A stretch of 38,965 nucleotides of DNA, from assembly GCA_002753395.1 (NCBI GenBank), contig PEAB01000028.1:1-38965 (forward strand), written 5' to 3'. The stretch is from Nitrospirae bacterium MYbinv3. GTDB taxonomy: Bacteria; Nitrospirota; Thermodesulfovibrionia; Thermodesulfovibrionales; Magnetobacteriaceae. Of this stretch, positions 153 to 38,578 are shown piece by piece. The first letter of the stretch is position 1. Every line of letters begins with the position of its first letter. The position numbers and the translations under genes were made by a program. The notes beneath the pieces are model-generated. The model was given only the letters and a program-made list of their open reading frames with translations, was not told the DNA's origin and ran no database searches.

Positions 153-256
153 TGGTAGTCCTGCACAAGTAGTGGTGACAGTAAACTTAACACCCTCCCC
201 TAACCCCTCCCATCAAGGGAGGGGGATTGAATATCGCTGCCTCTGCAGGACTACCA
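153..256 (+). repeat. 104-bp inverted-repeat element, copy 1
   Basis: The element begins TGGTAGTCCTGCA (153-165) and ends with its exact reverse complement TGCAGGACTACCA (244-256). The interior holds a CCCTCCCC/GGGAGGGGG hairpin. Near-identical 104-bp copies lie at 4470-4573 (opposite orientation) and 9867-9970. It has no coding capacity, so it resembles a MITE or a large REP-type palindrome. No clear target-site duplication is visible. Confidence 0.9.
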
Positions 257-391
257 TTTTATTTATTATGAGTTTTATTCTATAATGAAGGGTATAAAGA
301 GAAGTGACAGAAAAGATGATAATGTTTAATTGTGTGGAGTTAGTTTTTTAGTCAGAGAACAAGAAAGGAATGCTACAACGAGAGGAGAGTT

Positions 392-4793: not shown

Positions 4794-5115
4794 GTCGCAA
4801 TCCCTTCTAACTGAGGTCTTAATTCATTCCAGAGAATCAGATAAAGGCTATACATGCAGTTCTTTCGTCGCAATCCCTTCTAACTGAGGTCTTAATTCAT
4901 TCTCCTGATGAGAAGATTACGGAAATTCATAGCAGCCGTCGCAATCCCTTCTAACTGAGGTCTTAATTCATTCAGAGAAACGACAAAAAGGGCGAAAGCT
5001 CTGGCCGTCGCAATCCCTTCTAACTGAGGTCTTAATTCATTCGACATTCAACTGTTGTAAATACAAAATGGAGGCACCCGTCGCAATCCCTTCTAACTGA
5101 GGTCTTAATTCATTC
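4794..5115 (-). CRISPR. Type III-A CRISPR array: 5 identical 36-nt repeats, 4 spacers
   Basis: Repeats lie at 4794-4829, 4867-4902, 4938-4973, 5007-5042 and 5080-5115. They read GTCGCAATCCCTTC...ATTCATTC on the plus strand and are identical. Spacers are 37, 35, 33 and 37 nt (4830-4866, 4903-4937, 4974-5006, 5043-5079). On the minus strand the repeat ends GGGATTGCGAC. This fits Cas6 cleavage leaving an 8-nt ATTGCGAC handle, as in type III crRNAs, so the crRNA sense is minus, the same as the cas operon. The leader is then at the right (5116-5252) and the newest spacer would be 5043-5079. No degenerate end repeat is seen. The repeat has little hairpin potential. Confidence 0.97.
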
Positions 5116-5170
5116 GCTCCCCATGAATATCTTTAGCAATAACCATGATTTAAAGACACGGTTGTACACA

Positions 5171-5199
5171 TTTATACCTTCTGCATAAGTTGCTGTTAA
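5171..5199 (-). promoter_or_regulatory. Candidate CRISPR leader promoter
   Basis: On the minus strand TTAACA (5199-5194) is separated by 17 bases from TATAAA (5176-5171). These match the sigma-70 -35 and -10 boxes at five of six positions each. Transcription would start near 5164, about 50 bases before the first repeat, in the crRNA direction. The leader between array and cas6 is AT-rich and has no gene. Confidence 0.6.
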
Positions 5200-5252
5200 A
5201 TCTGATCTACAAACTATCATCGTTTTCAAAGATTGATATAGCGTAACATTTC

Positions 5253-6197
5253 TTATAGCTGCCTTGCAACAGTATATTTTCCAAGGCCAAAACTTGTACC
5301 CTTTCCTACATGCAGTAGCTCGCCTGCTTTAATGATTGAGTAAAAAGGCTCTATGTCCCCTCTATATGTTATAGTGCCTATAAGACCGCCCATTTTCATT
5401 TGCGTTTTCTGCCTGTTTGAGTACCGCTGCCAATCCAGCCACTCTAACTTATTTTCCAATATTGCCACATCTGCCGCATTATCTATTATATCCCTGTGAT
5501 TCCACAATAATTCCCTGTCCTGACAGTGAAAATAATGGAGGAGATATATCCTTCTCATTAAGGCTCTGAGCAAGATGTGAAAGTCAAGCTTAACCACCAT
5601 ATCTCTGTTAAATAGAATCCGTGCAGGCGTTATAAATCTCAACTTAAGTTCTCCGTGAGGGGATTTATCGAACTCAAACGTCTCAGAAATATTTAACTCC
5701 TCTGACAAACCCGCATTTATCTGACCATCGTCAACATTATAAACTGTCCTTTTATCATCGCTTACGCTGATTAATCTGTACTTGCCTCTACCCCTGCCAA
5801 GGCCAATCTTGCCAAGCTCAATAAATGCTAAAATAAAGTATGGCAAGTATTGTCCTGCCCTGCCTATCAATATCAAATTAAAACAGAGCCTTTCAGATTG
5901 ATTAAACACCCTGCCAGCTTCCTCGGGCGGCTCTATGATAAATGGATGAGGGATTTGCTCGTACTTGTTCATATTCATAACATTGGTACCTTCCATGGGA
6001 GACGTCTCAAATATATAGGCATAGACACAACTCGACTTTAATACGCACTCTGTACATTGCTGCCTTTTAAGGGCACATACAATACGCTTGAGTGCATTGC
6101 CAAATCCCCCGCGCATAGTAGAACCCTTATAAGGCGGCAACGACAGGACATCTAATGCCTCTATCGTTAAACTATATCTGCGGTATTGGATCGTCAT
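5253..6197 (-). CDS. cas6: Cas6 pre-crRNA endoribonuclease
   Basis: This 314-residue RAMP protein processes the CRISPR transcript at the repeat 3' side. The C-terminus carries the glycine-rich loop GKGTSFGLGKY typical of Cas6, and a second glycine-rich patch GKIGLGRGRGKY lies mid-protein. An N-terminal cysteine group (C41, C48-x2-C51, C57) is typical of the larger Cas6 subgroup and may bind metal. The ATG at 6197 overlaps the cas2 stop as ATGA, so I prefer it to the upstream in-frame start at 6239. It is the last gene of the cas operon, next to the leader. The catalytic histidine cannot be assigned from sequence alone. Confidence 0.9.
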   Translation of the reverse strand: MTIQYRRYSLTIEALDVLSLPPYKGSTMRGGFGNALKRIVCALKRQQCTECVLKSSCVYAYIFETSPMEGTNVMNMNKYEQIPHPFIIEPPEEAGRVFNQSERLCFNLILIGRAGQYLPYFILAFIELGKIGLGRGRGKYRLISVSDDKRTVYNVDDGQINAGLSEELNISETFEFDKSPHGELKLRFITPARILFNRDMVVKLDFHILLRALMRRIYLLHYFHCQDRELLWNHRDIIDNAADVAILENKLEWLDWQRYSNRQKTQMKMGGLIGTITYRGDIEPFYSIIKAGELLHVGKGTSFGLGKYTVARQL

Positions 6198-6472
6198 TCC
6201 AGAAACATGTCCACACCCTCTGGTATCCTGTCCCCACAACCCATAATTATTGGTCTTGGGTCAGACGGTAACGGGTATATCCTTACATCGTCTTGAGCAG
6301 GGTCAATAATACGACCAAGCTCCTCCTTTACCTGTGTCAATTCATTCCATGTAAACCTGCAAAAAAACACCGAATACTGCAGATGAAGCCCTCTGCCTCT
6401 TATGTACTTATATACCTTTGCAAGCCTGCGAGGATTCCTTATATCATAGCACAACAGATAATTTGATTTCAT
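6194..6472 (-). CDS. cas2: Cas2 (copy A), adaptation protein
   Basis: 92 residues with the Cas2 ferredoxin-like fold. The N-terminal strand LLCYDIRNPRRL carries the conserved aspartate D10, and LQYSVFFCRF is the second conserved strand. Cas2 dimers scaffold the Cas1 integrase during spacer acquisition. It overlaps the downstream cas6 and upstream cas1 genes by ATGA junctions. It differs clearly from the second cas2 at 8232-8513, so this is not a recent duplication. Confidence 0.93.
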   Translation of the reverse strand: MKSNYLLCYDIRNPRRLAKVYKYIRGRGLHLQYSVFFCRFTWNELTQVKEELGRIIDPAQDDVRIYPLPSDPRPIIMGCGDRIPEGVDMFLE

Positions 6473-7290
6473 GCCCCCAACTCCCTCATCAAACTAAACA
6501 GGTCGTCAATAACCAGTTCGATCTTCTCTCCGAGGCGTTTTCGCCTGCCCTCATATCTGTCTACAATGTCTCTCATAGCGTCCTTGAGACCACAGCCACC
6601 ATGTATAGAGTTAATATCAATGCCATTGCCCTTGCATGACTCCAGAAACATAATACACTGTAAGTCTACCTCTGGACTTACTAAATAGGAAAGATCAAGA
6701 GCAAATCCAAAGTTCTGCCGCCTGTGAACAACACCCATGTGAGGGTCAAGCTTGGCCATAATAAGCCTTTCAACAATCAACCCTCTGAATAAGTTTGAAA
6801 CTATCTTTCTTACAGTCTTAACCTGTCTTTCATATGCCGTAAAATACTCAGCAATTCGCTGCCTATACTCAGACTCTTTAAGCCCTTCTTCAAGGAAGGT
6901 TTGATCCTGTGCTTTAGCTGTATTGGTGAGCGCTTCGATTTGAAATCTCTTTCTCCATGATACACACAACGCCTTAAAGCGTGAAACGTTGTCCTCGGTT
7001 TCAACGAATATCCTCTGCATGTCATAATATAGAGGTAGATGGTCATTGTATGGTAAGCAGATGCAGCCATTGTTCCCTGATATATTCATCATTATAACAG
7101 GTATCTGATTCTCAGCAAGGAGTGAAAACACCCCCGATTCTAACTTTATGTTGCCGGAGATAAATACCCTCCCCAGGAGGCGAACGGGAATACGTCTATT
7201 GGCCTTACCCATCTCTTTTACCAGAAGGGATGGACCATCGCGTACAATCTCTATCTCTTTTGCCTCATTCAGATAAAGCGTCCTGTCCAT
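6469..7290 (-). CDS. cas1: Cas1-like protein (copy B), divergent and possibly catalytically impaired
   Basis: 273 residues with a Cas1 fold: an N-terminal beta domain (RTLYLNEAKEIEIVRDG...RVFISGNIKLES) and a helical C-terminal domain. Compared with the neighbouring Cas1, H189 (LDPHMGVVH) and D199 (FALDL) are kept. The helix that should read LEG-x-A-A-x-YF reads YRQRIAEYF, so an ungapped match puts Tyr142 where the catalytic glutamate belongs; the nearest Glu (141) is one residue off. The second acidic position after D199 is Tyr202. It overlaps the upstream cas1 by 26 bases and the downstream cas2 by four. It may be a specialised non-catalytic subunit of a mixed integrase. Confidence 0.85.
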   Translation of the reverse strand: MDRTLYLNEAKEIEIVRDGPSLLVKEMGKANRRIPVRLLGRVFISGNIKLESGVFSLLAENQIPVIMMNISGNNGCICLPYNDHLPLYYDMQRIFVETEDNVSRFKALCVSWRKRFQIEALTNTAKAQDQTFLEEGLKESEYRQRIAEYFTAYERQVKTVRKIVSNLFRGLIVERLIMAKLDPHMGVVHRRQNFGFALDLSYLVSPEVDLQCIMFLESCKGNGIDINSIHGGCGLKDAMRDIVDRYEGRRKRLGEKIELVIDDLFSLMRELGA

Positions 7291-8221
7291 CCATTATCCT
7301 CCGTGTAAGCTCCCTTACGATGTCCACATATCTGCTCCTAATATCCTTGGCCCATTGTTCATACATTGGATAAAACCGCTTTCTGCCTTCCTTTTTTAGA
7401 TAACAGCCAGGTCTCTCGCCATCTTGAAAGAAGTCCCTGTCTGTGAATTCCCTCTTCCTGAACAAATGCCACACAAACCTATCCACATCCGCACGAAAAG
7501 GCTCCACAAGGTCGCACGCCAGGGACTCCCTGCCGTACTCAAACCTATGATAAAAACCGATAAACGGGTCAAGTCCTATTACCTCTATCTCCCTCACCAT
7601 CTCGTAGTGAAGCATAGTATAGCACAGAGACAGCATTGCGTTAACGGGGTCTTCCGGGGGTCTTCTGGTGCGCTTTACGAAACCCAGAGAATCGGCAAAA
7701 AGCGTTGTATATGCCTGAAAATATGAAGCTGCGGCGCCGCCCTCAAGTCCCATTAGGGTGTCTTGGTCAGGCAGTCCAGTGAGTTTTTCCGATATCTTTT
7801 CAAGTGTCTTTAATGCCGTAAACAGGGATAACCGTTTGTCAGGCCGCTCTTGGAGCGCTTCTTTTAACAGACCACTCTGTGAGTCAACCTTTTTCCTTAC
7901 TATCTCGACAGAAAACAGGATGCTGAAAGCAGATAGGGATTTCTCATACTGCCTTACTCTCAGTGCACCGTTGTTGTGTAGGCTGCCGTGGAATATACCT
8001 TTAAATCTTAAACTCCTTCCAGAGAGAAATACTACGGTGACGCCCTCTTCTGAGAGCTTGTGAAGCGCCGAAGTCTCAAGTGTCACAGAACCTACAATCA
8101 CAATCCTCTTAAGCGGCTTTATCGGGACGCTGCCCTCTTTCGTGCCATTTGCATAAAAGGCAAGGGTATTGCCATCATCTCTTATAAGAATATCTTTTCT
8201 ATCTATATACAAGGTTCCCAT
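7265..8221 (-). CDS. cas1: Cas1 (copy A), canonical integrase
   Basis: 318 residues. The N-terminal beta domain starts MGTLYIDRKDILIRDDGNTL. The catalytic helical domain contains GLEGGAAASYF with E160, GFYHRF with H225, and CDLVEPFR with D237 and E240, so the metal-binding triad is complete. This is the enzyme that inserts new spacers at the leader end of the array. It lies 10 bases after cas2 copy B and overlaps Cas1 copy B by 26 bases, so both Cas1 proteins are co-translated. The RAD-type leader and ACDLVEPFR motif are standard for Cas1 of type I/III systems. Confidence 0.95.
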   Translation of the reverse strand: MGTLYIDRKDILIRDDGNTLAFYANGTKEGSVPIKPLKRIVIVGSVTLETSALHKLSEEGVTVVFLSGRSLRFKGIFHGSLHNNGALRVRQYEKSLSAFSILFSVEIVRKKVDSQSGLLKEALQERPDKRLSLFTALKTLEKISEKLTGLPDQDTLMGLEGGAAASYFQAYTTLFADSLGFVKRTRRPPEDPVNAMLSLCYTMLHYEMVREIEVIGLDPFIGFYHRFEYGRESLACDLVEPFRADVDRFVWHLFRKREFTDRDFFQDGERPGCYLKKEGRKRFYPMYEQWAKDIRSRYVDIVRELTRRIMDGQDALSE

Positions 8222-8231
8222 CTAAATCCCC

Positions 8232-8513
8232 CTATCCTATATAAAAGTAATCTGGGTCGTGGGGCGGTAACGCTATGCCCAGCACGTGAGGTGTACTCCT
8301 GCCATCCATTTGAAAGATATGCACGCGGTCCTCTTTATCCTTTATAAGCCCCTTGAGCTGCCCGATTACGTATTTTAATTCGCCTTCGGTCAGAAAGCAC
8401 TCATATACCGATTTCTGACCGCCTGTGCTGTACCCCTTCAGGAGATACCGCACGTCGTGCAAGCGGCTATCCTCCGTAATGTCATAGGCTATGAGATACA
8501 AAATCCTTTTCAC
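8232..8513 (-). CDS. cas2: Cas2 (copy B), adaptation protein
   Basis: 93 residues. The N-terminal strand ILYLIAYDITEDSRL carries the conserved Asp (D11), and GGQKSVYECFLT matches the second Cas2 strand. The C-terminal tail (PPHDPDYFYIG) is the type that docks on Cas1. It lies 15 bases after the CARF/HEPN gene and 10 bases before the canonical cas1, with which it probably pairs. The other Cas2 (6194-6472) pairs by position with the divergent Cas1, giving the symmetric order cas2-cas1-cas1-cas2. Confidence 0.93.
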   Translation of the reverse strand: MKRILYLIAYDITEDSRLHDVRYLLKGYSTGGQKSVYECFLTEGELKYVIGQLKGLIKDKEDRVHIFQMDGRSTPHVLGIALPPHDPDYFYIG

Positions 8514-8528
8514 AGGCCGCAGCTAATC

Positions 8529-9773
8529 TTAATCGTCAAACTCCAACCTTGGAAAAACGGGGGCGTCTGACTCGTTAAAACTCTTTAGGTCGAGGATAAA
8601 CTTCTTTAGCTTATCATATGTTGATTCCTCTGAAAATTCAAAGCCATGAGCAAGGTAAGACAGATTTCTTTTATTTTGTAACTCTTTAAAACGCTGTTCT
8701 TGCTTCTCATAGCTCTTCCCAAAATCGTCCTCTAGTGCAAGAAGTAACTGTAGAGAGGCATCCTGGGACAGCTTTATCTTATCGTCCTTTTTGTGATTAC
8801 GAACAAAGCAATCCCTTACTGTATCTGGTAATTGATCCTCTTTTACATTAGAGGTGTTTATGTTGTACTTGTTCAGGAGCCTCTCCTGTGCAATCATCTC
8901 TACAAGCCTGTAGAGCCTGAGCACAGCGTCATCTGTCTTCCCCTCTTCAGATCTTCTGAGCGCATTTGCATACATGTCAAGGATATGTTTCAGGAAAATT
9001 TGTCCATTTGCCTCTGTTAACTCTTTAATGAAATCCAAATTCTTTTTTGTCGCCTCTGCAAAGGCCTTAATCCTTGCATCCTTGGACAATGCTAGTATAT
9101 CGTCTATCTTTCCTTTATAAAACGAATCTTGGGCCTGCTTGTGTCTAAACAAATCCCATTTATAGTAACCATCTACAAGACTCGCCAACGATCTAAAAAT
9201 TGGACTGCCTTCTACCCCTTTTTGCACTAGACCGTCTAACAAATCCTTTGCGGCCTTAAACTGATATTGATTAAAAAGGACTGAAATCTTTTTCTTCTCC
9301 TCTACTGCCAATAAATCCCACGGATTTACACTATCGTAGATCGTTTCGTGTCCGTCCTGGACAATACCAACACCGTCCTTAGTCCTCTGCGTTCCACCAA
9401 CGTATGAGTAACAAAAGCCATACGTAATCGAGGCAAGGGCAAGGGCGACAGACATGTTCTTTGTCCCCCCGGTGTAGTCAACGATAATCTCTTCCTTGCT
9501 GTAACCTTTATCCATTACCCTCTTGACGGATTCCTTTGCCTTGTCATGGCAGTGTCGTAAATCGTTTACATCGTCTGCACAGGTTAGTTCGCTCTTTATG
9601 TCCAGTCCATCGGTGTCCTTAACACTTCTTTTTATATCAGCGATCTTGTCGCACGTGTCCTGGGATGCAAAAAACGAGACAAACTCAGGCCTATAGTGTG
9701 AAATGGACTTTACAATAGGTTCCGGTGTTCCACCAACTGATATGATCATTGCCTTGTACTTCTTTTCTTCCAT
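8529..9773 (-). CDS. CARF-HEPN ribonuclease of the Csm6-like (TIGR02710) group
   Basis: 414 residues. The N-terminal CARF domain (~1-160) starts KAMIISVGGTPEPIV and has the ligand-loop motif DYTGGTKNMS at 99-108. The C-terminal helical domain includes DAVLRLYRLVEMIAQERL and an R-x6-H HEPN motif, R369 to H376 (RNLSYLAHG). In type III systems such proteins bind cyclic oligoadenylate made by Cas10 and become non-specific RNases. The ATG at 9773 is preceded by AAGGAGG at ideal spacing, so it is preferred to an in-frame ATG at 9800. The 104-bp element lies just upstream. It belongs to the TIGR02710 type rather than classical Csm6, with good confidence. Confidence 0.9.
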   Translation of the reverse strand: MEEKKYKAMIISVGGTPEPIVKSISHYRPEFVSFFASQDTCDKIADIKRSVKDTDGLDIKSELTCADDVNDLRHCHDKAKESVKRVMDKGYSKEEIIVDYTGGTKNMSVALALASITYGFCYSYVGGTQRTKDGVGIVQDGHETIYDSVNPWDLLAVEEKKKISVLFNQYQFKAAKDLLDGLVQKGVEGSPIFRSLASLVDGYYKWDLFRHKQAQDSFYKGKIDDILALSKDARIKAFAEATKKNLDFIKELTEANGQIFLKHILDMYANALRRSEEGKTDDAVLRLYRLVEMIAQERLLNKYNINTSNVKEDQLPDTVRDCFVRNHKKDDKIKLSQDASLQLLLALEDDFGKSYEKQEQRFKELQNKRNLSYLAHGFEFSEESTYDKLKKFILDLKSFNESDAPVFPRLEFDD

Positions 9774-9866
9774 GATTGCTTCCTCCTTATTGTTGATCAT
9801 TGTTTACAATGCATCCTCTTTATATTTCACGGTAACTATACTTTTACGCATCCTGGATTCCTGGTC

Positions 9867-9970
9867 AGGTAGTCCTGCACAAGTAGTGGTGACAGTAAAC
9901 TTAACACCCTCCCCTAACCCCTCTCATCAAGGAAGGGGGATTGAATATCACTACCTCTGCAGGACTACCA
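9867..9970 (+). repeat. 104-bp inverted-repeat element, copy 3, inside the cas operon
   Basis: Same element as 153-256. The left end has one mismatch (AGGTAGTCCTGCA, 9867-9879); the right end is intact (TGCAGGACTACCA, 9958-9970). It fills most of the 203-base gap between csm5 and the CARF/HEPN gene, the only real gap in the cas operon. Its stem-rich interior could attenuate or separate transcription of the effector and adaptation parts. Confidence 0.9.
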
Positions 9971-9976
9971 TAAATT

Positions 9977-11107
9977 TTACCCTGCTTTTTTAAGAGGATA
10001 ATTTACAATCTCCAATACTGCCCATCCAAAGGACTTGAGTCTGCTGTTGGCGTCTGGTTTAGACTCCTCGGATGCAAGCCATAGGGTAGTGGCGCAAGAC
10101 TCATAAGTATCAGGTTCACCTCTTTTATGCATAATCTTTATATTCCTATATCCCTCAATGGTTACGGCCTCTGCCCCGGAGTGCCTGCCTATCCTGAGCA
10201 AAAAGGCAGACTTCCCCCACTTGTCCTTGAACTGCGAAGGCATAACGGAGGGGCTTGCCTTGATTCTGGCTATGACCTTGTTATCCTCATCGTATACGCT
10301 GTTGTAGAAGCCATTGACGGCGTTTAACAAGATACCAGGTTTAACAGGATTGCTTATAACACCTGTCTTCAGCGGTTGATCAATATTTATGGTGCCGCTA
10401 AAGACCGTATTAACCCCTATCGTTTCTATTATTTGGTACGGCCCCTTAGCGGCCTGACCTTCGTCCTTCTTTCGGTTAACGGCGTAGAATATCTTGCATT
10501 TGCCATCCCCTTCCGGTATAAAATCTGATACCTTGAGCAGTCGCAAGGGGTCAGTGTCAAATTGTCCGCCAAGTAGCTGTCTTTCCAGGTATTTATTTCC
10601 GTCTTTTTTGTCTCCAGTATTTAAACGCTTGCTTTCCTTTGCCAGCTTATTCAGATAGGCCGTGCGCATTGCCCCCTTTATCGAGGAGCCTGGTATATAC
10701 GGCAGATTGTTATGTGGATTGTAGGCGGTTCTGGCAATGTGAAATTGATTGAGTTCCTTCTCCTCATTTTTTAAAGATATGCCCTTAACCTTCTTGTAAT
10801 GCTCCAGCAGAGTGCTGCTACACTCAACCCTGACAATGATCTTCTGCTTACTGGGTTGAAACTTTTCAGCAACAAACCTCATCATCTCGATAATAGATGC
10901 AATGCTGCCCTTGTCGCAAATGCCTAAAAACCCCCCCCTGTCTTGTTCCGATAAGGAATCTATGAAAACCATTGGATCAAAGGCTGCCAGATTCAATTCA
11001 TTGCTTTTATTTCTGAGTATCACAAATGATGTTGGATCATATATGTCATCGCAGCCTATATGCACCGGAGACATTATGTGAAGCCTGACCTGCAGCGGTT
11101 TTTCCAT
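9977..11107 (-). CDS. csm5: Csm5, type III-A RAMP subunit
   Basis: 376 residues. Csm5 caps the crRNA 3' side of the Csm effector complex and helps recruit nucleases that mature the crRNA. RAMP features are visible: the N-terminal LHIMSPVHIGCDD motif, the central YIPGSSIKGAMRTAYLNKL motif (~residues 137-156), and C-terminal LLRIGRHSGAEAVTIEG. The ATG at 11107 follows GGAGG inside the csm4 end, two bases past its stop, so I prefer it to an upstream in-frame start at 11194. The 3' end touches the inverted-repeat element. Confidence 0.93.
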   Translation of the reverse strand: MEKPLQVRLHIMSPVHIGCDDIYDPTSFVILRNKSNELNLAAFDPMVFIDSLSEQDRGGFLGICDKGSIASIIEMMRFVAEKFQPSKQKIIVRVECSSTLLEHYKKVKGISLKNEEKELNQFHIARTAYNPHNNLPYIPGSSIKGAMRTAYLNKLAKESKRLNTGDKKDGNKYLERQLLGGQFDTDPLRLLKVSDFIPEGDGKCKIFYAVNRKKDEGQAAKGPYQIIETIGVNTVFSGTINIDQPLKTGVISNPVKPGILLNAVNGFYNSVYDEDNKVIARIKASPSVMPSQFKDKWGKSAFLLRIGRHSGAEAVTIEGYRNIKIMHKRGEPDTYESCATTLWLASEESKPDANSRLKSFGWAVLEIVNYPLKKAG

Positions 11108-11108
11108 G

Positions 11109-12149
11109 TTAAACCTCCACGCTGATCGGTATATAGAGTGAATATCCCTGTGCCACGGTTTTCTTATGCACAAGCGATATACCAGTGACACCAACCCCTA
11201 TATACGGTTTCTTAGGTATATCTTTATTCTTTGGCATAAAGACGGCCCCCTCATCGGCCATGACGATTGGACATTTAAAGGGGTTGCCTGACCTGGCCAG
11301 TACATCGCCATGCCTGCCAAACCTCGTAAACGGCGTAAAAAACATATCAGCGTAGATATCCCTCTCAGGGACGCATGGGGCAAGGGTGTAACAGGCATTT
11401 GGATTATCGCTGCCTAACCCCATGAGGTCTATCTCCATCCACTCCCCAAGGCAAAACCTGCCCAGGCCGGTTGAGGCATCACGGCCAAAGCCCATATCCC
11501 CGATCCTGCCAATGGCCGTAATGACCTGCTCAATTGTCACAACATCATCGTCTATACCAACAAACAACGCCAGTTCAGTGTTAGGATAATACACCCCATG
11601 CTCCACTGAGAAGGGTGCAAATTGCGCATCACCTGTAGTGCCGGTATCCCTGTTTATGGTGTTGTGAGACTGAAGAAAGTCGGTGATAAAGCTGCCACCG
11701 CCCCTCTTGTGTATCTGCTGCCTTTCTTTGTCACTCAGCGCTGCCTTAAATTCATCAAACAACTCCTTGTCATTGCAGAATTTAAAATCCTTAAACGACG
11801 AGAATTTCTTGCCTTCCGGCACAAGCATCCACTTCTTTGACTTAACCTCCTTGCGCTTCTTTATGCGTTGCACTGTGTCCTGTGGGAGGTCAAACATGCA
11901 GTCAGGCGGCAGGCTTGGCGTAGGCAGGGCATATGTGTAAGTGCGGTTTACGTATAGCTTCGGAAAGGCCGATGAAAATACCACAAAGGGAGCCTCCAGA
12001 TAACGGGCAATCAGGGTACCGAACTGTTCACCGAGCAGCTCCTGTTCATCGTAGGCTAGCTGCCAGCAGAAGTGCCCAAAGATGGTGTCTCCCTTGAGAT
12101 GGGTTGCAAATCCGCTCAGCGGCTTTATGGTAATCTCATATGTCTTCAA
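11109..12149 (-). CDS. csm4: Csm4, type III-A RAMP subunit
   Basis: 346 residues. Csm4 binds the 5' handle of the crRNA and joins Cas10 to the Csm3 backbone. The N-terminal IKPLSGFATHLKGDTIFGHF motif is the Csm4 signature. The glycine-rich loop GDMGFGRDASTGLGRF lies near residues 217-232, and the C-terminus has GISLVHKKTVAQGYSLYIPI. It overlaps csm3 by four bases (ATGA) and csm5 follows after two bases. The length is slightly above the family norm (~300) because of the insert around 95-170. Confidence 0.95.
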   Translation of the reverse strand: MKTYEITIKPLSGFATHLKGDTIFGHFCWQLAYDEQELLGEQFGTLIARYLEAPFVVFSSAFPKLYVNRTYTYALPTPSLPPDCMFDLPQDTVQRIKKRKEVKSKKWMLVPEGKKFSSFKDFKFCNDKELFDEFKAALSDKERQQIHKRGGGSFITDFLQSHNTINRDTGTTGDAQFAPFSVEHGVYYPNTELALFVGIDDDVVTIEQVITAIGRIGDMGFGRDASTGLGRFCLGEWMEIDLMGLGSDNPNACYTLAPCVPERDIYADMFFTPFTRFGRHGDVLARSGNPFKCPIVMADEGAVFMPKNKDIPKKPYIGVGVTGISLVHKKTVAQGYSLYIPISVEV

Positions 12150-12877
12150 CTGCCGCCTCCACGATTAAAGGGGGCCAGACTCTCAAAATTGGCATTAATG
12201 CCAGGATCGTTAAACGCTATCTTTACCCTTCCATACCCCCTGCTTCCACTTCCGCCAAGGGTATCCATCTCAAGCAGTCTTAGCCCCTTAAGGAGTACCG
12301 ATTCAAAGAGTCCTTCATCCCCCTCAGCCAGCACCTTAAAGGTAATCAGGAAGTTGAATTCTGTCCCCTCAGGCACACGCTCGATAAATCTCGGATCCTT
12401 GGCTGTACCTTTGATCCTGTTTATGACGTTTTCCGACTTCTCCTCCGTGAGGGACCAACGATTTTCCTGTGCCTTTTTAAGCCAATCACTATCAAGATAG
12501 CAGTCGGCAAACGACGCCCTTGTCGGTCCAATTTCACCAGAGGCAGCATCGGCGCTCGCCCCAAAGACCTTGAGCAGGGCAATACATTTTTTTGTTAACG
12601 CTTCGTTGCCTTTTACCGTTTTATATTCCAGCGTCTTGCCTGATACAACGTTGCCGTCTGTGTAAGCCATCAATCCGCTTTCCATCTCAAGCAGGGAGCG
12701 TACCTTTCCCTTTAACGAAGACCCCGGTATATAGGGTTGAAGAGTATGGGGATGCTTGATCACAGGGCTGTCCGTGCCGCCGATATGCATCTCCGTATTG
12801 CCAGAGCCTATATGAAGGCCGCTCCTAAGTGTTATCGTGCCCTCAAGTCTCTTGATATCTTTGAGTCTTAATTCCAT
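12146..12877 (-). CDS. csm3: Csm3, backbone and target-RNA-cleaving RAMP subunit
   Basis: 243 residues. Csm3 polymerises along the crRNA and cleaves target RNA at 6-nt intervals. The N-terminus reads LRSGLHIGSGN, and GGTDSPVIKHP contains D36 at the position of the known catalytic aspartate, so RNase activity is probably intact. YIPGSSLKGKVRSLLE and the glycine-rich LGGSGSRGYGRVKI are the other RAMP hallmarks. It lies 21 bases after csm2 with an AGGAGG ribosome site and overlaps csm4 by four bases. Confidence 0.96.
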   Translation of the reverse strand: MELRLKDIKRLEGTITLRSGLHIGSGNTEMHIGGTDSPVIKHPHTLQPYIPGSSLKGKVRSLLEMESGLMAYTDGNVVSGKTLEYKTVKGNEALTKKCIALLKVFGASADAASGEIGPTRASFADCYLDSDWLKKAQENRWSLTEEKSENVINRIKGTAKDPRFIERVPEGTEFNFLITFKVLAEGDEGLFESVLLKGLRLLEMDTLGGSGSRGYGRVKIAFNDPGINANFESLAPFNRGGGS

Positions 12878-12898
12878 ATTTCACCTCCTTTTTGTGTT

Positions 12899-13339
12899 TT
12901 AGTTTTTTGGATTATAGTATTTATAATACCCCATGATGGCCTCAAAGAAACTTGCAAATACGTCAAGGTCTTTTGCTTCTGTAACTTGGGTTATATTTTT
13001 TTTGATAAACTCCTTAAAACCACTTGATATGAGTTCTCTACCTTCGGCATATGCCGCCTTTGCGTTTAACATCTGCAAGTAAGGCAGTATCTTTTCAAAC
13101 TCCGATGGATTGTCTTTTACTCTTCTGTTAAACATTATGACCTCATCATAAAACTTTCGTATCTGAGAGCTTTTATTGCTTTTATCACGGCTCTCTTTAC
13201 GATCAGAAGTTAATTTTTTGGCTATTTCGTCAGCCTTACCAGAAAAGAGATCAGGATTAATCAATGTTTTATCTTTATCCTTCCAGAAACTTACCTTAAT
13301 CTCGCTGCTTGTATCTTTGCCTCTGATGTTTCCTTCCAT
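12899..13339 (-). CDS. csm2: Csm2, small subunit of the Csm complex
   Basis: 146 residues, mostly helical. The core from ~55 on (QIRKFYDEVIMFNRRVKD...LPYLQMLNAKAAYAEGR) is the Csm2 family pattern, and the C-terminus reads FASFFEAIMGYYKYYNPKN. The first ~50 residues are charged and likely disordered, making it a little longer than average. Csm2 multimers line the target-RNA groove. It lies between cas10 and csm3, 12 bases after the cas10 stop, with an AGGAGG ribosome site. Confidence 0.92.
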   Translation of the reverse strand: MEGNIRGKDTSSEIKVSFWKDKDKTLINPDLFSGKADEIAKKLTSDRKESRDKSNKSSQIRKFYDEVIMFNRRVKDNPSEFEKILPYLQMLNAKAAYAEGRELISSGFKEFIKKNITQVTEAKDLDVFASFFEAIMGYYKYYNPKN

Positions 13340-13351
13340 TGCACTTCCTCC

Positions 13352-15901
13352 TTATCTGCGGTTATATATTACTTGCCACAGGGGTATCTTCAAAGATCCA
13401 CCGTGCTCCTCAAGCCATTGAACGCTCTGTTCCACTTCCTTTAGCGCCACGGCTCGTTCATCATCTTTAAGTCCCCTTCCCACGTTCCTGATAAGGGCGT
13501 ATCTGAGCATTGCCCTCCACTTCAGGCACTCTATATCGTCTACGCTAATACCCTGCCCCATCTCCAACAGCCTCTTGGTCTTCTTTGACATCTCAATAAA
13601 GGTGTTTAACCTAAATAGCATGGCGCTATTGATATAATCACTGTCTAACCACTTATAAATTTTGTCCCTGCAAGAGTTCAATGTCTCAAGCCCTTCCCAC
13701 TTAACCGTCTCTCCAAATATGGTTATAGCATTCTTGGCTTCAACTGCCTTGGATTTCTCAAGGGCACCCTCAGACCTTTTGGCCAGAGACAGCACCGGAT
13801 CGTTAGGCTTGCTGAGGCTTATACCGGCGGATATCGTAATATGCCTGTTGCCACACACATACTCCCTGAACCTATCTCTCATAAACCCGGCAAAGTCAAT
13901 AATACGGTTCCACGGCCCAATGACAAACAGGTCGTCTCCACCCGCAAACACGGTGTAGATATCACTAAACCTATCATCTGTGCTTAAAACGTGTGGCAGG
14001 TACACCGTAAAAAACAGGTTCAACTGCCTGCTCAATGTCGCCATCCGTGAGATACTTATGCGTTCCTTTCTGATCCCACAACCAAACACAGCTCCAAGGT
14101 TATCCACATCGGCCTTGAGCGCTGCCATGGCCTCAATCCCCATATCAACGCCGTCATCGCTTGACGCCTTATTTATGGCTGTCTTGGCGATATCGGAAAA
14201 CGATTTCGGTATGACATCACCCCCTTGTCCATCATCTTGAAATGGCACGTAGCCGTTGAGGAACCTGGCCGTCTTATCCGTGGTTATATCTCCATCCTTT
14301 GAGATAGATATATCCCAGTATTTGACGAGCTGCCCCTTGTCGGCAAGCTCATTGAGCTGCCCTGTTACATCCAAAGACACCTGATAGTCACCAAAGATGG
14401 GTTCCAAGAGCTTCTCATTGAGCTTCGCCTCTTTAGTGGTAACTGCTATAAGTGGTTTTTTGACAAGATTTGTACCTAAATATATGTGGTCCCTACAGAT
14501 ATTGCAGGCAGACTTCTCCTCTCCTAAGAGAGAATCGTTTTCAGCCTCTGGGCTTGACGGCCTCTTACCGCAGAAGGGACACAACGCCTTGGCCAGAGCA
14601 TTGTTAAACCTGTTGAGATAGCCCTTGACAGGGCCGCCGTATTTCTCAAGGTCGATCTTCTTATACTTGTGTCGCTGAGACTGCACATTAAACCTCTCCC
14701 AAAACTCAGAAAACCCCTTGGAGATAAGGTTGTTGCATGAGACATCACAGTACGATAGCCCAATAGATGACTCTCCGAGAAAGTTGTCCATAAACCATTC
14801 ATTGATCTGTGTCTCCGTCTCGCTAATCATTTTTACAGTGACAGGCGTGTTGGGGGCCATGATAGTAAAGTTACCCGCCGCGTTTAAGATAATCGAGGAC
14901 GGGGTTAGTCCTATATTCGTACATAGCAGGTGGGCAGCCAGTTCTGACAGGAGAGAGACAGCAAACGACCTCCCCCTTAGGAGCTTGGCGGAGGCCTTCA
15001 TGGTGCTGCCGCCCTCTGCAAAGATGAAGTCCTGGATGCCGTAAAAATCGCCTTTTACCAACAAGAACTTCTCGATCTCGTAGTCCTTAATCCTCTCTAT
15101 ATCCATACTGTCAGTCTGTTGGTGATACAAGTAAATGGCCGAGGCAATAGCAGAGGTGGTCTTGGAGTGGTCATAGAATGATATATCTGGTATTGTCTTC
15201 CCCACGGTGGCAGAGGGGATATTTGAGGCATAGATCATGAAGAGGCTGTCAAAGTGATCAAACCACAGGGGGATATTCTGCCTGTGTGAAATGTCGCCAA
15301 GTGAGTTTACAAAATCCTTGAACAACTTGGTATACTCCTTAGTCGCCGATTTACTGTCTAAAGATCGATATCCATCTCCATCTATCGGAAAAATATTTTT
15401 AGGCGAAAGCCTCTCTAAAGGGTATCTGAATCTGTAGGAATTGATATCGCCCTCTTTGTGTTTGTTATCTAGGCTGATTCCTTCAAATATGGAGAGCATC
15501 CGAGTTTTTTTGTAATCCCTGATTTTAACCTCGTTATTGTAGTCCTCGAACTCTTTTCTGTCCATTCCACTGCTTACCCTATCGGCAACAGCGATTATCC
15601 ACTGCATAGGGGTCTCTGGCTTGTGGTGCCCTGCGGCAAGATTGATAAACGGATCGCCTATTCCCCAATTGCCTTTATTAAACCACGGTGGCAGATACTT
15701 TTCGATGTGTTCAATAAATGCCGCCGTATAGACGGCATGGCTATGGGTGTAGCGGTTGTTGTAATACGGTTGATATAGAGGCGCATTATCGTTTTTGTAT
15801 TCTTGCCCTGGATGAAACCCCTCATCTCCTGCCCTTTCAGCAAACTTACCGATATCGTGTAAATACCCTGCGATAGCTATCTTATAGATTGTGTCATCCA
15901 T
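13352..15901 (-). CDS. cas10: Cas10/Csm1, large subunit with HD nuclease and cyclase palm
   Basis: 849 residues. The N-terminal HD domain has GYLHDIGKF (H15/D16), AAGHHKPE and ADRVSSGMDR, suggesting active ssDNA nuclease. A zinc-finger region has CPFCGKR and CNICRDH. The second palm domain holds the cyclase motif FAGGDDLFVIG, which in this family makes cyclic oligoadenylates from ATP on target-RNA binding. The intact GGDD matches the presence of a CARF/HEPN effector downstream. I prefer the ATG at 15901 (MDDTIYKIAI), directly after GAGGGGGAA; a TTG at 15925 and an ATG at 15913 are alternatives. First gene of the cas operon. Confidence 0.96.
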   Translation of the reverse strand: MDDTIYKIAIAGYLHDIGKFAERAGDEGFHPGQEYKNDNAPLYQPYYNNRYTHSHAVYTAAFIEHIEKYLPPWFNKGNWGIGDPFINLAAGHHKPETPMQWIIAVADRVSSGMDRKEFEDYNNEVKIRDYKKTRMLSIFEGISLDNKHKEGDINSYRFRYPLERLSPKNIFPIDGDGYRSLDSKSATKEYTKLFKDFVNSLGDISHRQNIPLWFDHFDSLFMIYASNIPSATVGKTIPDISFYDHSKTTSAIASAIYLYHQQTDSMDIERIKDYEIEKFLLVKGDFYGIQDFIFAEGGSTMKASAKLLRGRSFAVSLLSELAAHLLCTNIGLTPSSIILNAAGNFTIMAPNTPVTVKMISETETQINEWFMDNFLGESSIGLSYCDVSCNNLISKGFSEFWERFNVQSQRHKYKKIDLEKYGGPVKGYLNRFNNALAKALCPFCGKRPSSPEAENDSLLGEEKSACNICRDHIYLGTNLVKKPLIAVTTKEAKLNEKLLEPIFGDYQVSLDVTGQLNELADKGQLVKYWDISISKDGDITTDKTARFLNGYVPFQDDGQGGDVIPKSFSDIAKTAINKASSDDGVDMGIEAMAALKADVDNLGAVFGCGIRKERISISRMATLSRQLNLFFTVYLPHVLSTDDRFSDIYTVFAGGDDLFVIGPWNRIIDFAGFMRDRFREYVCGNRHITISAGISLSKPNDPVLSLAKRSEGALEKSKAVEAKNAITIFGETVKWEGLETLNSCRDKIYKWLDSDYINSAMLFRLNTFIEMSKKTKRLLEMGQGISVDDIECLKWRAMLRYALIRNVGRGLKDDERAVALKEVEQSVQWLEEHGGSLKIPLWQVIYNRR

Positions 15902-16444
15902 TTTCCCCCTCATTTGATAAATCAAGCATTTCGTGTTAGTGTTAACGTCTGGGAATTTCCCTGCCCCTCTAATCTTCGATATTCCTTATTATAAATAAAA
16001 GCATTTTAAATAAACCACATTCCTTATCTTTGTATTGTGCTCTATTTTGCTGAAGGAAGGATAATAGTTCACCCGTATGTGTTTAAAATGGAGGGCTTTG
16101 CCTAGTGATACTAAGTTGCATTCAAAGAGGTATCTTATGTTTCAGAATGTAAGATGTTGTATTATAATGGGGTTAAGGGGACTGGTCACCTTGCAGAGGG
16201 GTCTAAGGGGAGACAGAGTCTCCCCTTCTATCGTATACTGAACTATTACACGGATTTAAGGATTGTCAGGAGCATGTCATCTCTTTTTCCTGTAGATCCT
16301 TTCATCAGTGTAATCCTAGTTCAGACAATCTCGATGTTTACTTAAATCTGACATTGTCAAGGTGATTTCAGGGCAATTTTTCAGGTTATAGGCAACAATT
16401 CAAAACGATAGACCTCCCTTCTTTTTTTGGCTCTCAAATTTTGT
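15902..16444. other. Intergenic region upstream of cas10, with a hairpin repeat
   Basis: This holds the start region of the cas operon. On the minus strand a TATAAT is present at 15993-15988, about 90 bases before cas10, but the matching -35 (GGTTTA at 17 bases) is poor, so the promoter call is weak. 16169-16229 is a member of the GC-rich hairpin repeat family. TGACATTGTCAA at 16350-16361 equals an end of the small inverted-repeat element at 22036-22151. No gene is seen; the 63-codon frame at 16154-16345 merely crosses the hairpin repeat. Confidence 0.5.
16169..16229 (+). repeat. GC-rich double-hairpin intergenic repeat
   Basis: Contains GGTTAAGGGGACTGGTCACC and GGGGAGACAGAGTCTCCCC, two hairpins in fixed order. 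Relatives lie at 22897-22960, 22760-23090, 32275-32358 (reverse), 32873-32965, 35731-35790 and 37771-37890. Confidence 0.7.
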
Positions 16445-22759: not shown

Positions 22760-23090
22760 CTCTCTTGACGCAGGGGGGGCGCAACCCCCGTTCCAAGGAA
22801 AGCCCCTTGCGGATGGGTCTGAGGGGTAATGCTGTTGACTTAAGCATTATTGATGTATAGCAAGTAACATCTTTAGCAGCCACGCCTGACATTTACGGGG
22901 TCAAGGGGACTCGTCCCCTTGTGGGAGGGTCTAGGGAGGGCAAAGCCCTCTCTATTTTTTTGCATCTTTATATCCTTAAGTCAACAGCATTAGGTCTGAG
23001 GGGAGGGGTTGTGAACCCCCGCGACAGTGGGCAGAGCCTCCCCTTCTTTGACAAAACCCACGACTTTCTTATGTACCCTTATGCACCCCA
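22760..23090 (+). repeat. GC-rich hairpin repeat interrupted by a 166-bp element
   Basis: Left part 22760-22826 and right part 22993-23090 together form one member of the hairpin repeat family, including the CACGACTTTCTTATG tail seen at 32942-32957. It is split by the inverted-repeat element at 22827-22992. Nothing here is coding. Confidence 0.75.
22827..22992. mobile_element. 166-bp MITE with 18-bp perfect inverted ends and 11-bp target duplication
   Basis: The ends are TAATGCTGTTGACTTAAG (22827-22844) and its exact reverse complement (22975-22992). GGTCTGAGGGG occurs on both sides (22816-22826 and 22993-23003). The uninterrupted relative at ~32904-32920 has one copy of this 11-mer followed by AGG, showing the empty site. 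The interior holds a hairpin repeat copy like that at 35702-35790. There is no transposase, so it would be mobilised in trans. Confidence 0.88.
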
Positions 23091-32769: not shown

Positions 32770-32872
32770 CTATTTTCCTCCTTATGTTTGAATGTATAGG
32801 TTTTATGTGTATTATCCATTATATTATAAAGACATTCATCGGGTGCATATAAAATTCATGGGGAGTTTAATG

Positions 32873-32965
32873 GGGTCAAGGGGACTGGTCCCCTTGCGGA
32901 GGGGTCTGAGGGGAGGCAGAGCCTCCCCTTCTTTGAAAAACCCCACGACTTTCTTATGCGCCCCA
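32873..32965 (+). repeat. GC-rich double-hairpin repeat, intact copy with tail
   Basis: GGGGTCAAGGGGACTGGTCC, GGGGAGGCAGAGCCTCCCC and the tail CACGACTTTCTTATGCGCCC are all present. This serves as the uninterrupted reference for the split copy at 22760-23090. Confidence 0.75.
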
Positions 32966-35701: not shown

Positions 35702-35790
35702 AACATCTTAAGCAGCCACGCCTGACATTTATGGGGTCAAGGGGACGAGTCCCCTTGTGGGTGGGTCTAGGGAGGGCAACGCCCGCCCTA
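35702..35790 (+). repeat. Hairpin repeat related to the interior of the 166-bp MITE
   Basis: AACATCTTAAGCAGCCACGC and the following GGGGTCAAGGGGACGAGTCC closely match 22867-22955, the interior of the element at 22827-22992, but without the 18-bp ends. The hairpins could terminate transcription between the kinase genes. No gene lies in 35693-35895. Confidence 0.7.
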
Positions 35791-35895
35791 TCTTTACATA
35801 TTCATAACATTCAGACGTGAAAATATCCATGCCCATATAGTAATATAGTAGGGCTAATGTTTTTAATAAAATACAAGATAGTTAGGTAGAATCTA

Positions 35896-37894: not shown

Positions 37895-38040
37895 GTAAGA
37901 TTTCTAAGATTATTTCCACATACCCTGGGAGTTTATCATGCAGTAATTTCATATACCAGTAGGTCTGAGGTGCAGCAGAGCGGCATTATCTAATAATATG
38001 CTGTATTATCAGCAGCTTATGGAGGCTGGCAAAAAAACAC

Positions 38041-38069
38041 TTGACAAGTGGGTTTTTCTAGTGTAACAT
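38041..38069 (+). promoter_or_regulatory. rRNA promoter P1
   Basis: TTGACA (38041-38046), 17-base spacer, TAACAT (38064-38069). A boxA-like TGTTCTTTGA follows at 38083-38092. Confidence 0.75.
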
Positions 38070-38230
38070 TACAACATATAGTTGTTCTTTGATAGAGTCT
38101 AAAAGATGCGTAGTGCTCCTGTGAATAGCAAGAGTTAAACCTTAAAGTTAAGCATGCCGAACCTACCCTTATATGTGGATCGAGCGTTAAGTGAGATCCT
38201 GTAGAGGTTTAGGGGGTGGAAAAAAAGTGC

Positions 38231-38259
38231 TTGACAAACGCAAAACTTTGGTGTATCAT
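38231..38259 (+). promoter_or_regulatory. rRNA promoter P2
   Basis: TTGACA (38231-38236), 17-base spacer, TATCAT (38254-38259). A boxA-like TGTTCTTTGA follows at 38273-38282. Confidence 0.8.
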
Positions 38260-38418
38260 TAGAACATATAGTTGTTCTTTGATAGAGTCTAAAAGATGCG
38301 TAGTACTCCTGTGAATAGCAAGAGTTAAACCTTAAAGTTAAGCATTCCGAACCTATCTTATATGTGGATCGAGCGTTAAGTGAGATCCTGTAGAGGTTTA
38401 GGGGCTGAAAAAAAGTGC

Positions 38419-38447
38419 TTGACAAACGTAAAACTTTGATGTACTAT
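38419..38447 (+). promoter_or_regulatory. rRNA promoter P3
   Basis: TTGACA (38419-38424), 17-base spacer, TACTAT (38442-38447). A boxA-like TGTTCTTTGA follows at 38461-38470. This is the copy nearest the 16S gene, about 130 bases upstream. Confidence 0.8.
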
Positions 38448-38578
38448 AAGAGCATATAGTTGTTCTTTGATAGTCTAAAAGATGCGTAGTGCTCCTGTGA
38501 ATAACATGAGTAAAAACTAAGTTTAGTAAATTACGAGAATTAAGCAAGCGAGCTTAAGCCAGATATAGAATCAACTTT

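What the first reader, a model, noticed from the sequence alone, without database searches (positions are those of the whole stretch)
6194..8513. Doubled, symmetric adaptation module cas2-cas1-cas1-cas2 with one catalytically altered Cas1
Four overlapping or tightly spaced genes encode two different Cas1 and two different Cas2 proteins. Cas1 copy A has E160, H225, D237 and E240. Copy B keeps H189 and D199, but an ungapped match puts Tyr142 at the catalytic Glu position and Tyr202 at the second acidic position. In known Cas1-Cas2 structures only one Cas1 of each dimer performs catalysis, so a dedicated non-catalytic partner could make a hetero-oligomeric integrase with fixed asymmetry, perhaps setting spacer orientation or PAM reading. 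I do not know of a described example in type III-A.
Basis: partly seen in the sequence, partly recalled or inferred. Interest (0 to 1): 0.78.

Follow-up and report, generated by a model that had tools for sequence, protein, structure and literature searches.

The report
Paired active and inactive Cas1 module
Bacteria of the Nitrospirota carry a widely conserved four-gene version of the machine that records viral DNA in CRISPR memory, in which one copy of the cutting-and-pasting protein Cas1 stays active while a second, kept as its constant partner, has lost its active site, so the machine is probably built from different halves instead of identical ones.

Summary
The four genes (cas2ii-cas1ii-cas1i-cas2i, minus strand, 8513-6194) are not a local oddity. 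The same cassette, in the same order, was found in 46 of 52 loci that hold both Cas1s, across 15 families of the phylum (Nitrospirota judging by record titles). Cas1ii (318 aa) is a normal Cas1: E160, H225, D237 and E240 are invariant in 53 of 53. Cas1i (273 aa) has a full Cas1 fold, but no full-length member of 49 keeps the Glu/His/acid triad. Cas1i is not decaying: dN/dS is about 0.04-0.19, its tree mirrors that of Cas1ii, and of 47 phylum genomes with either Cas1, 45 have both. Tyr202 at the second acid is right. The best explanation is an obligate heteromeric integrase: Cas1ii catalyses, and Cas1i permanently fills the non-catalytic, Cas2-contacting place in each Cas1 dimer. That step is inferred. 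PADLOC already lists a 'diverged Cas1, second in the loci', so a second Cas1 has been noticed before. I found no published account of this four-gene module, but only open-licence papers could be searched.

The parts
8232..8513 (-). cas2ii: Cas2 paralogue with motif YSTGGQKSVYECxL and C-terminal YFYIG
   Evidence: PF09827 E 3.9e-15; motif near-invariant in 47 members
7265..8221 (-). cas1ii: canonical, presumably catalytic Cas1 (E160, H225, D237, E240)
   Evidence: PF01867 E 5.9e-79; residues invariant in 53/53; AF2 pLDDT 86.9, Z 34.2 to 4n06
6469..7290 (-). cas1i: diverged second Cas1; E135, H189, D199 kept, Y202 in place of the last active-site acid, RxRRPP loop deleted
   Evidence: PF01867 E 2.9e-11 over residues 13-139 only; AF2 pLDDT 81.3, Z 22.7 to T. 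maritima Cas1 4xtk; alignments
6194..6472 (-). cas2i: second Cas2 paralogue with motif QYSVF
   Evidence: PF09827 E 9.5e-19; distinct from cas2ii in every locus
5253..6197 (-). cas6 (ATG at 6197, overlapping the cas2i stop)
   Evidence: PF10040 E 8.2e-18; overlap read directly
4794..5116 (-). CRISPR array, 5 repeats of 36 nt, spacers 33-37 nt; repeat GAATGAATTAAGACCTCAGTTAGAAGGGATTGCGAC (strand inferred from the ATTGCGAC end)
   Evidence: same repeat family beside the cassette in other genomes
5117..5252 (-). putative leader between cas6 and the array
   Evidence: position only (inference)
8529..9800 (-). csm6-like CARF-HEPN ribonuclease (TIGR02710)
9977..15925 (-). type III-A effector genes csm5, csm4, csm3, csm2, cas10
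   Evidence: PADLOC Csm5, Csm4, Csm2, Csm3 and Cas10a

Best explanation
This is a conserved four-subunit CRISPR adaptation module. Cas1ii is the working integrase. Cas1i is a pseudo-enzyme Cas1 that keeps the fold and the dimerising N-terminal domain but not the active site. In known Cas1-Cas2 integrases each Cas1 dimer already has one catalytic and one non-catalytic monomer, and Cas2 touches only the non-catalytic one. Here, I propose, that division is fixed in two genes: each Cas1 dimer is a Cas1ii-Cas1i heterodimer, Cas1i binds Cas2 and the prespacer duplex, and Cas1ii takes the 3' ends and does both strand transfers. Cas2i and Cas2ii probably form the central Cas2 pair, as a heterodimer, which would make the two ends of the integrase different. 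Shown: two Cas1 and two Cas2 families, conserved order, active-site loss in Cas1i, purifying selection, co-inheritance, long arrays next to the module. Inferred: the hetero-complex, its stoichiometry, the Cas2 heterodimer, and any effect on the direction of integration.
For: 1) The cassette cas2ii-cas1ii-cas1i-cas2i is in order in 46 of 52 loci that have both Cas1s. Five of the six others have a contig break or edge near the missing gene (L089, L093, L091) or a cas2ii about 13 kb away on the same contig (G234, G335). 2) Near-obligate pairing: of 392-396 phylum genomes, 47 have Cas1i, 47 have Cas1ii, 45 have both; the two Cas1i-only cases are a deletion remnant and a contig edge. 3) Active site: canonical in 53/53 Cas1ii; in Cas1i the catalytic-Glu column is acidic in 11/49, the His is H in 33/53, the last acid is D/E in 3/53, and none has all three. 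E141, H208, D218 and D221 of E. coli Cas1 are each needed for activity (PMC4046053). 4) Cas1i is a whole Cas1 fold, Z 22.7 over 263 residues. 5) dN/dS of Cas1i 0.04-0.19 in all pairs but the most recent one, like Cas1ii. 6) Cas1i and Cas1ii each form one clade with mirrored branching (the most diverged Cas1i rows have unsure places); distance correlation 0.865, none of 1000 permutations above 0.30. 7) Conservation shifts: in Cas1i the N-terminal dimerisation domain is best kept (0.50), in Cas1ii the catalytic region (0.77). 8) Known Cas1 dimers have a catalytic and a non-catalytic monomer and join through N-domains (PMC6977970); Cas2 contacts only Cas1b, whereas the 3' ends enter Cas1a (PMC6395717). 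9) Arrays of up to about 103 repeats with one 36-nt repeat family lie beside the module.
Against: No complex was predicted or measured: only single chains could be folded. The window's own Cas1i keeps three of four active-site residues, so its inactivity rests on Y202, the lost loop and the family pattern. G200 has cas2-cas1-cas2 with no detectable second Cas1, and G093 has no cas2ii, so the four-part set is not absolutely required in the deepest lineage. Co-inheritance of adjacent genes also follows from linkage alone. Three loci carry broken or partly deleted cas1i (L088, L097, L108).
Confidence: 0.62

Rival explanations
1. Decaying duplicate: cas1i and the extra cas2 are leftovers of a tandem duplication and do nothing.
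For: Active-site residues are lost; three loci show truncated or broken cas1i (L088, L097, L108).
Against: Intact ORFs across 15 families at 20-64% identity to the window copy, dN/dS 0.04-0.19 in all but the most recent pair, conserved gene order and overlaps, near-obligate pairing.
Confidence: 0.02
2. One-ended integrase: a Cas1ii homodimer sits on one side of a Cas2i-Cas2ii heterodimer and a Cas1i homodimer on the other, so the complex joins only one prespacer end (for example the leader side) and the other end is completed otherwise.
For: Gene symmetry pairs each Cas1 gene with its own neighbouring Cas2 gene; two distinct Cas2 families.
Against: Known full-site integration needs two active Cas1s (established knowledge); long regular arrays argue for complete integration. 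The mirror-tree correlation is highest between the two Cas1s, though longer proteins are also less noisy.
Confidence: 0.12
3. Cas1i keeps some catalytic role with a rearranged active site (for example E135 or the frequently conserved E139, with H184 or H189 and D199), such as prespacer trimming or second-end joining.
For: D199 in 52/53, H184 in 47/53, E139 E/D in 40/53; the window copy keeps E135, H189 and D199.
Against: The last active-site acid is lost in at least 49/53, the His in 20/53 and the Glu column is unconserved; the RxRRPP loop is gone.
Confidence: 0.1
4. Cas1i (with Cas2i) is an accessory or regulatory DNA-binding subcomplex, for example prespacer capture or control of acquisition, not a subunit of the Cas1ii integrase.
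For: Cas1i is basic (median pI 9.5) and coupled to its own cas2.
Against: The best-kept part is the dimerising N-domain; Cas1ii almost never occurs without it.
Confidence: 0.12

Closest known systems
Canonical Cas1-Cas2 integrase (E. coli 5ds4/5dqz, A. fulgidus Cas1 4n06, type I-C 8d3l)
   Same: Same folds; functional split of each Cas1 dimer into catalytic and non-catalytic monomers (PMC6977970).
   Different: There one Cas1 gene and one Cas2 gene make a symmetric set; here two Cas1 and two Cas2 genes, with one Cas1 lacking the active site.
PADLOC PDLC01185 'Cas1, diverged variant, second in the loci'
   Same: Also a diverged Cas1 that is second in its locus; the best PADLOC match of the second Cas1 in the deep-branching G093 (8.4e-14).
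   Different: The window Cas1i matches it only at 30.5 bits, below general Cas1 profiles. The one-line description mentions no active-site loss, paired Cas2 or mechanism. Its source publication could not be read here.
Cas1-solo group 1 (stand-alone Cas1 without the full active site; PMC4046053)
   Same: Cas1 homologue lacking the full set of catalytic residues.
   Different: Those lie outside CRISPR loci, as stand-alone genes, and are not part of a cas operon with a catalytic Cas1 partner.
RT-Cas1 and Cas4-Cas1-like fusions in the same phylum
   Same: Other modified Cas1s (Cas1 matches inside frames of about 550-890 aa; the naming of the extra domains is inferred from length and family knowledge).
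   Different: They add a domain to an active Cas1; here the change is a second, inactive Cas1.

Membership tests
Cas1 (PF01867), for cas1i | Match to the family profile above the curated cut-off | tested here: met
   43.5 bits against 22.3, but only residues 13-139
Cas1 (PF01867), for cas1i | Two-domain Cas1 fold over the whole length | tested here: met
   AF2 pLDDT 81.3; Z 22.7, 263 residues aligned to 4xtk
Cas1 endonuclease/integrase, for cas1i | Four active-site residues (E141/H208/D218/D221 in E. coli) | tested here: not met
   E135, H189 and D199 present, Y202 instead of the last acid; no full-length member of 49 has the Glu/His/last-acid set
Canonical Cas1-Cas2 adaptation module | Active Cas1 and a Cas2 beside a CRISPR array | tested here: met
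   cas1ii residues invariant, cas2 profiles, 5-repeat array; activity itself not assayed
Canonical Cas1-Cas2 adaptation module | One Cas1 and one Cas2 gene forming a symmetric complex | tested here: not met
   Two Cas1 and two Cas2 genes in 46 of 52 loci with both Cas1s; the complex itself was not tested
PADLOC PDLC01185 diverged second Cas1 | Profile match and second position in the locus | tested here: inconclusive
   6.9e-8, 30.5 bits, not the best profile; no cut-off is given
Type III-A CRISPR-Cas | cas10/csm1, csm2, csm3, csm4, csm5 in one operon | tested here: met
Cas1-solo group 1 | Stand-alone Cas1 outside CRISPR loci | tested here: not met
   cas1i lies in a cas operon with cas2 and an array
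Heteromeric Cas1 integrase (proposed) | Physical Cas1ii-Cas1i-Cas2 complex | not testable with these tools
   only single chains could be folded; needs co-folding or biochemistry

The most novel reading that the evidence does not exclude
A built-in asymmetric CRISPR integrase: two Cas1ii-Cas1i heterodimers on a Cas2i-Cas2ii heterodimer, so that the two ends of the machine are chemically different and a new spacer is loaded and inserted in one direction. That would matter especially for type III immunity, where the crRNA must match the transcript strand.
Probability: 0.3. Interest if true: 0.87.

Novelty: new variant of a known kind. Interest (0 to 1): 0.72.

Why it matters
The Cas1-Cas2 integrases described so far (to my knowledge) are symmetric assemblies in which identical Cas1 copies take different jobs, and how such a machine reads direction is a recognised problem (stated in PMC12259127). 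A natural system in which those jobs are split between two genes lets each role be mutated, labelled and swapped separately. It gives a direct test of what the non-catalytic Cas1 does and of whether two different Cas2s give direction. It is also a clear case of a pseudo-enzyme subunit kept under selection in a core CRISPR protein family, in a phylum where about an eighth of the genomes sampled carry it.

Tried and rejected
Tyr142 as the catalytic-Glu replacement: rejected by four MAFFT modes and hhalign; the conserved Tyr142 is the structural tyrosine of canonical Cas1. A first hhalign with shallow alignments gave an unreliable register there and was set aside. Decaying duplicate: rejected. 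Missing cas2ii in three Nitrospira-type MAGs looked like loss; in two it is about 13 kb away on the same contig, the third contig ends. Comparing the Cas1i model with catalytic and non-catalytic chains of DNA-bound structures: the listed best chains are largely the same for Cas1ii, so no discrimination. Single-sequence scans of genome contigs and viral contigs gave no loci, the alignment scan of viral contigs none, plasmids one weak hit. 'diverged cas1' in PMC12669027 is only 'diverged Cas10'. The PNAS 2018 paper that I suspect (from memory) as the source of PDLC01185 is not held. Ten paper searches found no description of the module, in an open-licence library only. CRISPR repeat palindromy as a reason for asymmetry: only a weak hairpin, not pursued.
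Full report
CHECK OF THE OBSERVATION. The minus-strand operon runs cas10 (15925) - csm2 - csm3 - csm4 - csm5 - csm6 - cas2ii (8513-8232) - cas1ii (8221-7265) - cas1i (7290-6469) - cas2i (6472-6194) - cas6 (6197-5253) - CRISPR array (5116-4794). Both Cas2s match PF09827. Both Cas1s match PF01867: cas1ii over its whole length (E 5.9e-79), cas1i only over residues 13-139 (E 2.9e-11). Its ungapped placement of Tyr142 on the catalytic Glu is wrong. Four MAFFT modes with 49 Cas1i and 48 canonical Cas1s and hhalign against a broad Cas1 profile (probability 99.5-99.9%) all put Glu135 on E160, Tyr142 on the conserved Y167, His189 on H225, Asp199 on D237 and Tyr202 on E240. They also show that the segment holding the R-x-R-R-P-P loop is deleted in Cas1i.

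IS IT MORE THAN CHANCE? A search with cas1i found full-length relatives in 14 of 59 related genomes at 25-64% identity, and in all 14 the four genes stand in the same order. A profile search of 396 genomes of the phylum extended this to 47 genomes in 15 families. A pattern scan of a named collection gave 22 loci, most titled Nitrospirae or Thermodesulfovibrionales, again with the cassette in each (some are the same genomes as before). Over the non-redundant set, 52 loci hold both Cas1s and 46 have all four genes in order. The cas1ii/cas1i ORFs overlap by exactly 26 nt in 25 of 52, and cas1i/cas2i share a 4-nt overlap in 27 of 52. Of the six exceptions, L089 and L093 are cut by contig ends (G282 keeps the rest of cas2ii on another contig), L091 lies on a 10-kb contig, L095 and L096 have their cas2ii about 13 kb away on the same contig, and L098 (G093) shows no cas2ii. 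Two independent profile searches show 45 of 47 overlap between Cas1i and Cas1ii genomes. The two Cas1i-only genomes are a deletion remnant (G128) and a contig edge (G275). The two Cas1ii-only genomes are G215, which has a very diverged second Cas1 below threshold, and G200, which has cas2-cas1-cas2 and no second Cas1.

THE TWO CAS1s. E. coli Cas1 needs E141, H208, D218 and D221 (PMC4046053). In Cas1ii the equivalents are invariant in 53 of 53. In Cas1i the Glu column is E or D in 11 of 49 full-length members, the His column is H in 33 of 53, the first Asp is kept in 52 of 53 and the last acid is D/E in only 3 of 53. None has Glu, His and last acid together. The window copy is one of the milder ones: it keeps Glu135, His189 and Asp199. 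Cas1i is nevertheless a complete Cas1 fold: AF2 pLDDT 81.3 and pTM 0.82, with its best solved match T. maritima Cas1 at Z 22.7, rmsd 3.4, 263 residues; Cas1ii gives Z 34.2 to 4n06. The model merges the helix after the Glu position with the next one (residues 139-178), as expected from the deleted loop.

SELECTION AND HISTORY. Pairwise dN/dS of Cas1i is 0.04-0.19 in all pairs but the most recent one (0.375, dS 0.06), much like Cas1ii at 0.06-0.17 (0.27 in that pair). In a tree of 142 Cas1s the Cas1ii family forms one clade (SH-aLRT 100) and Cas1i one side of a branch (95), with matching internal groups; a few Cas1i rows have very long branches and unsure places. Cas1i is far from all canonical Cas1s, so whether it arose by duplication of Cas1ii cannot be read from this tree. 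Distances of Cas1i and Cas1ii correlate at 0.865, higher than any other pair among the four proteins, with no permutation of 1000 above 0.30. That is expected of linked genes too, so it supports co-inheritance rather than contact. The N-terminal domain is the best conserved part of Cas1i (mean identity 0.50), whereas the catalytic region is best in Cas1ii (0.77).

CONTEXT. The module goes with III-A effectors of at least two sorts and, in L068, with Cmr3 and other RAMP genes of III-B. One family of 36-nt repeats (GTCGCAATCCCTTYT...AGGTCT...) lies next to it in nearly all loci where an array was found, in arrays of up to about 103 repeats, which suggests that it acquires spacers.

MECHANISM. 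In structurally known integrases each Cas1 dimer, joined through N-terminal beta domains, has a catalytic monomer and a non-catalytic one (PMC6977970). In E. coli, Cas2 touches only the non-catalytic Cas1b, while the 3' ends enter Cas1a (PMC6395717). A Cas1 that keeps fold and N-domain, loses the active site and nearly always travels with an active Cas1 fits a permanently assigned Cas1b. I therefore propose Cas1ii as catalytic subunit, Cas1i as fixed non-catalytic subunit and Cas2i/Cas2ii as the central pair. If the Cas2 pair is a heterodimer, the complex has two different ends, which would address the orientation problem that a C2-symmetric integrase faces (PMC12259127). The hetero-complex, the Cas2 heterodimer and directionality are inference. 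A role of Cas1i in PAM reading through a C-terminal tail looks less likely, because Cas1i ends in its last helix and type III interference is not known to need a PAM (established knowledge).

COMPARISON AND NOVELTY. PADLOC's PDLC01185 'Cas1, diverged variant, second in the loci' shows that somebody catalogued a diverged second Cas1. It is the best PADLOC match for the deep-branching G093 protein, but only a weak match for the window protein. Neither that one-line note nor any open-licence paper found here describes the four-gene cassette, the family-wide loss of the active site in one Cas1, or the paired Cas2s. I rate it a new variant of a known kind: a Cas1-Cas2 integrase with a dedicated inactive Cas1 and two Cas2s.

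Noticed in passing
L099 (G200) 7446-9190: A deep-branching relative has cas2-cas1-cas2 with both Cas2 types but no detectable second Cas1; possibly an ancestral or reduced state of the module.
   Followed up: partly
L095, L096 (G335, G234): In two MAGs (family f29) cas2ii is about 13 kb from cas1ii; very large ORFs (over 2,000 aa) lie beside cas1ii in between. In L091, a similar locus, the corresponding ORF had no Pfam match.
   Followed up: partly
G000:C123 (L041, 5129-8180): The same genome has a second, ordinary cas1-cas2 pair with its own 25-repeat array of about 30-nt repeats, unrelated to this module.
   Followed up: no
window 16164-16231, 22892-22959, 32867-32934, 35728-35795: Four dispersed copies of a 68-nt sequence that folds into a strong hairpin pair; looks like a small dispersed repeat family.
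   Followed up: partly
window 38023-38578: Three tandem copies of about 190 bp, each with a TTGACA-like promoter motif, directly before the 16S rRNA gene at the window end.
   Followed up: no
window 154-276 and 9868-9990: A 123-nt repeat, 89% identical, present beside the csm5/csm6 junction and at the window start.
   Followed up: no
L107: A MAG titled Archaeoglobi archaeon JdFR-42 carries the bacterial cassette (52% identity); probably a binning error, not tested.
   Followed up: no
L034 10693-18165: An array of about 103 repeats beside the cassette, a good source for protospacer matching.
   Followed up: no
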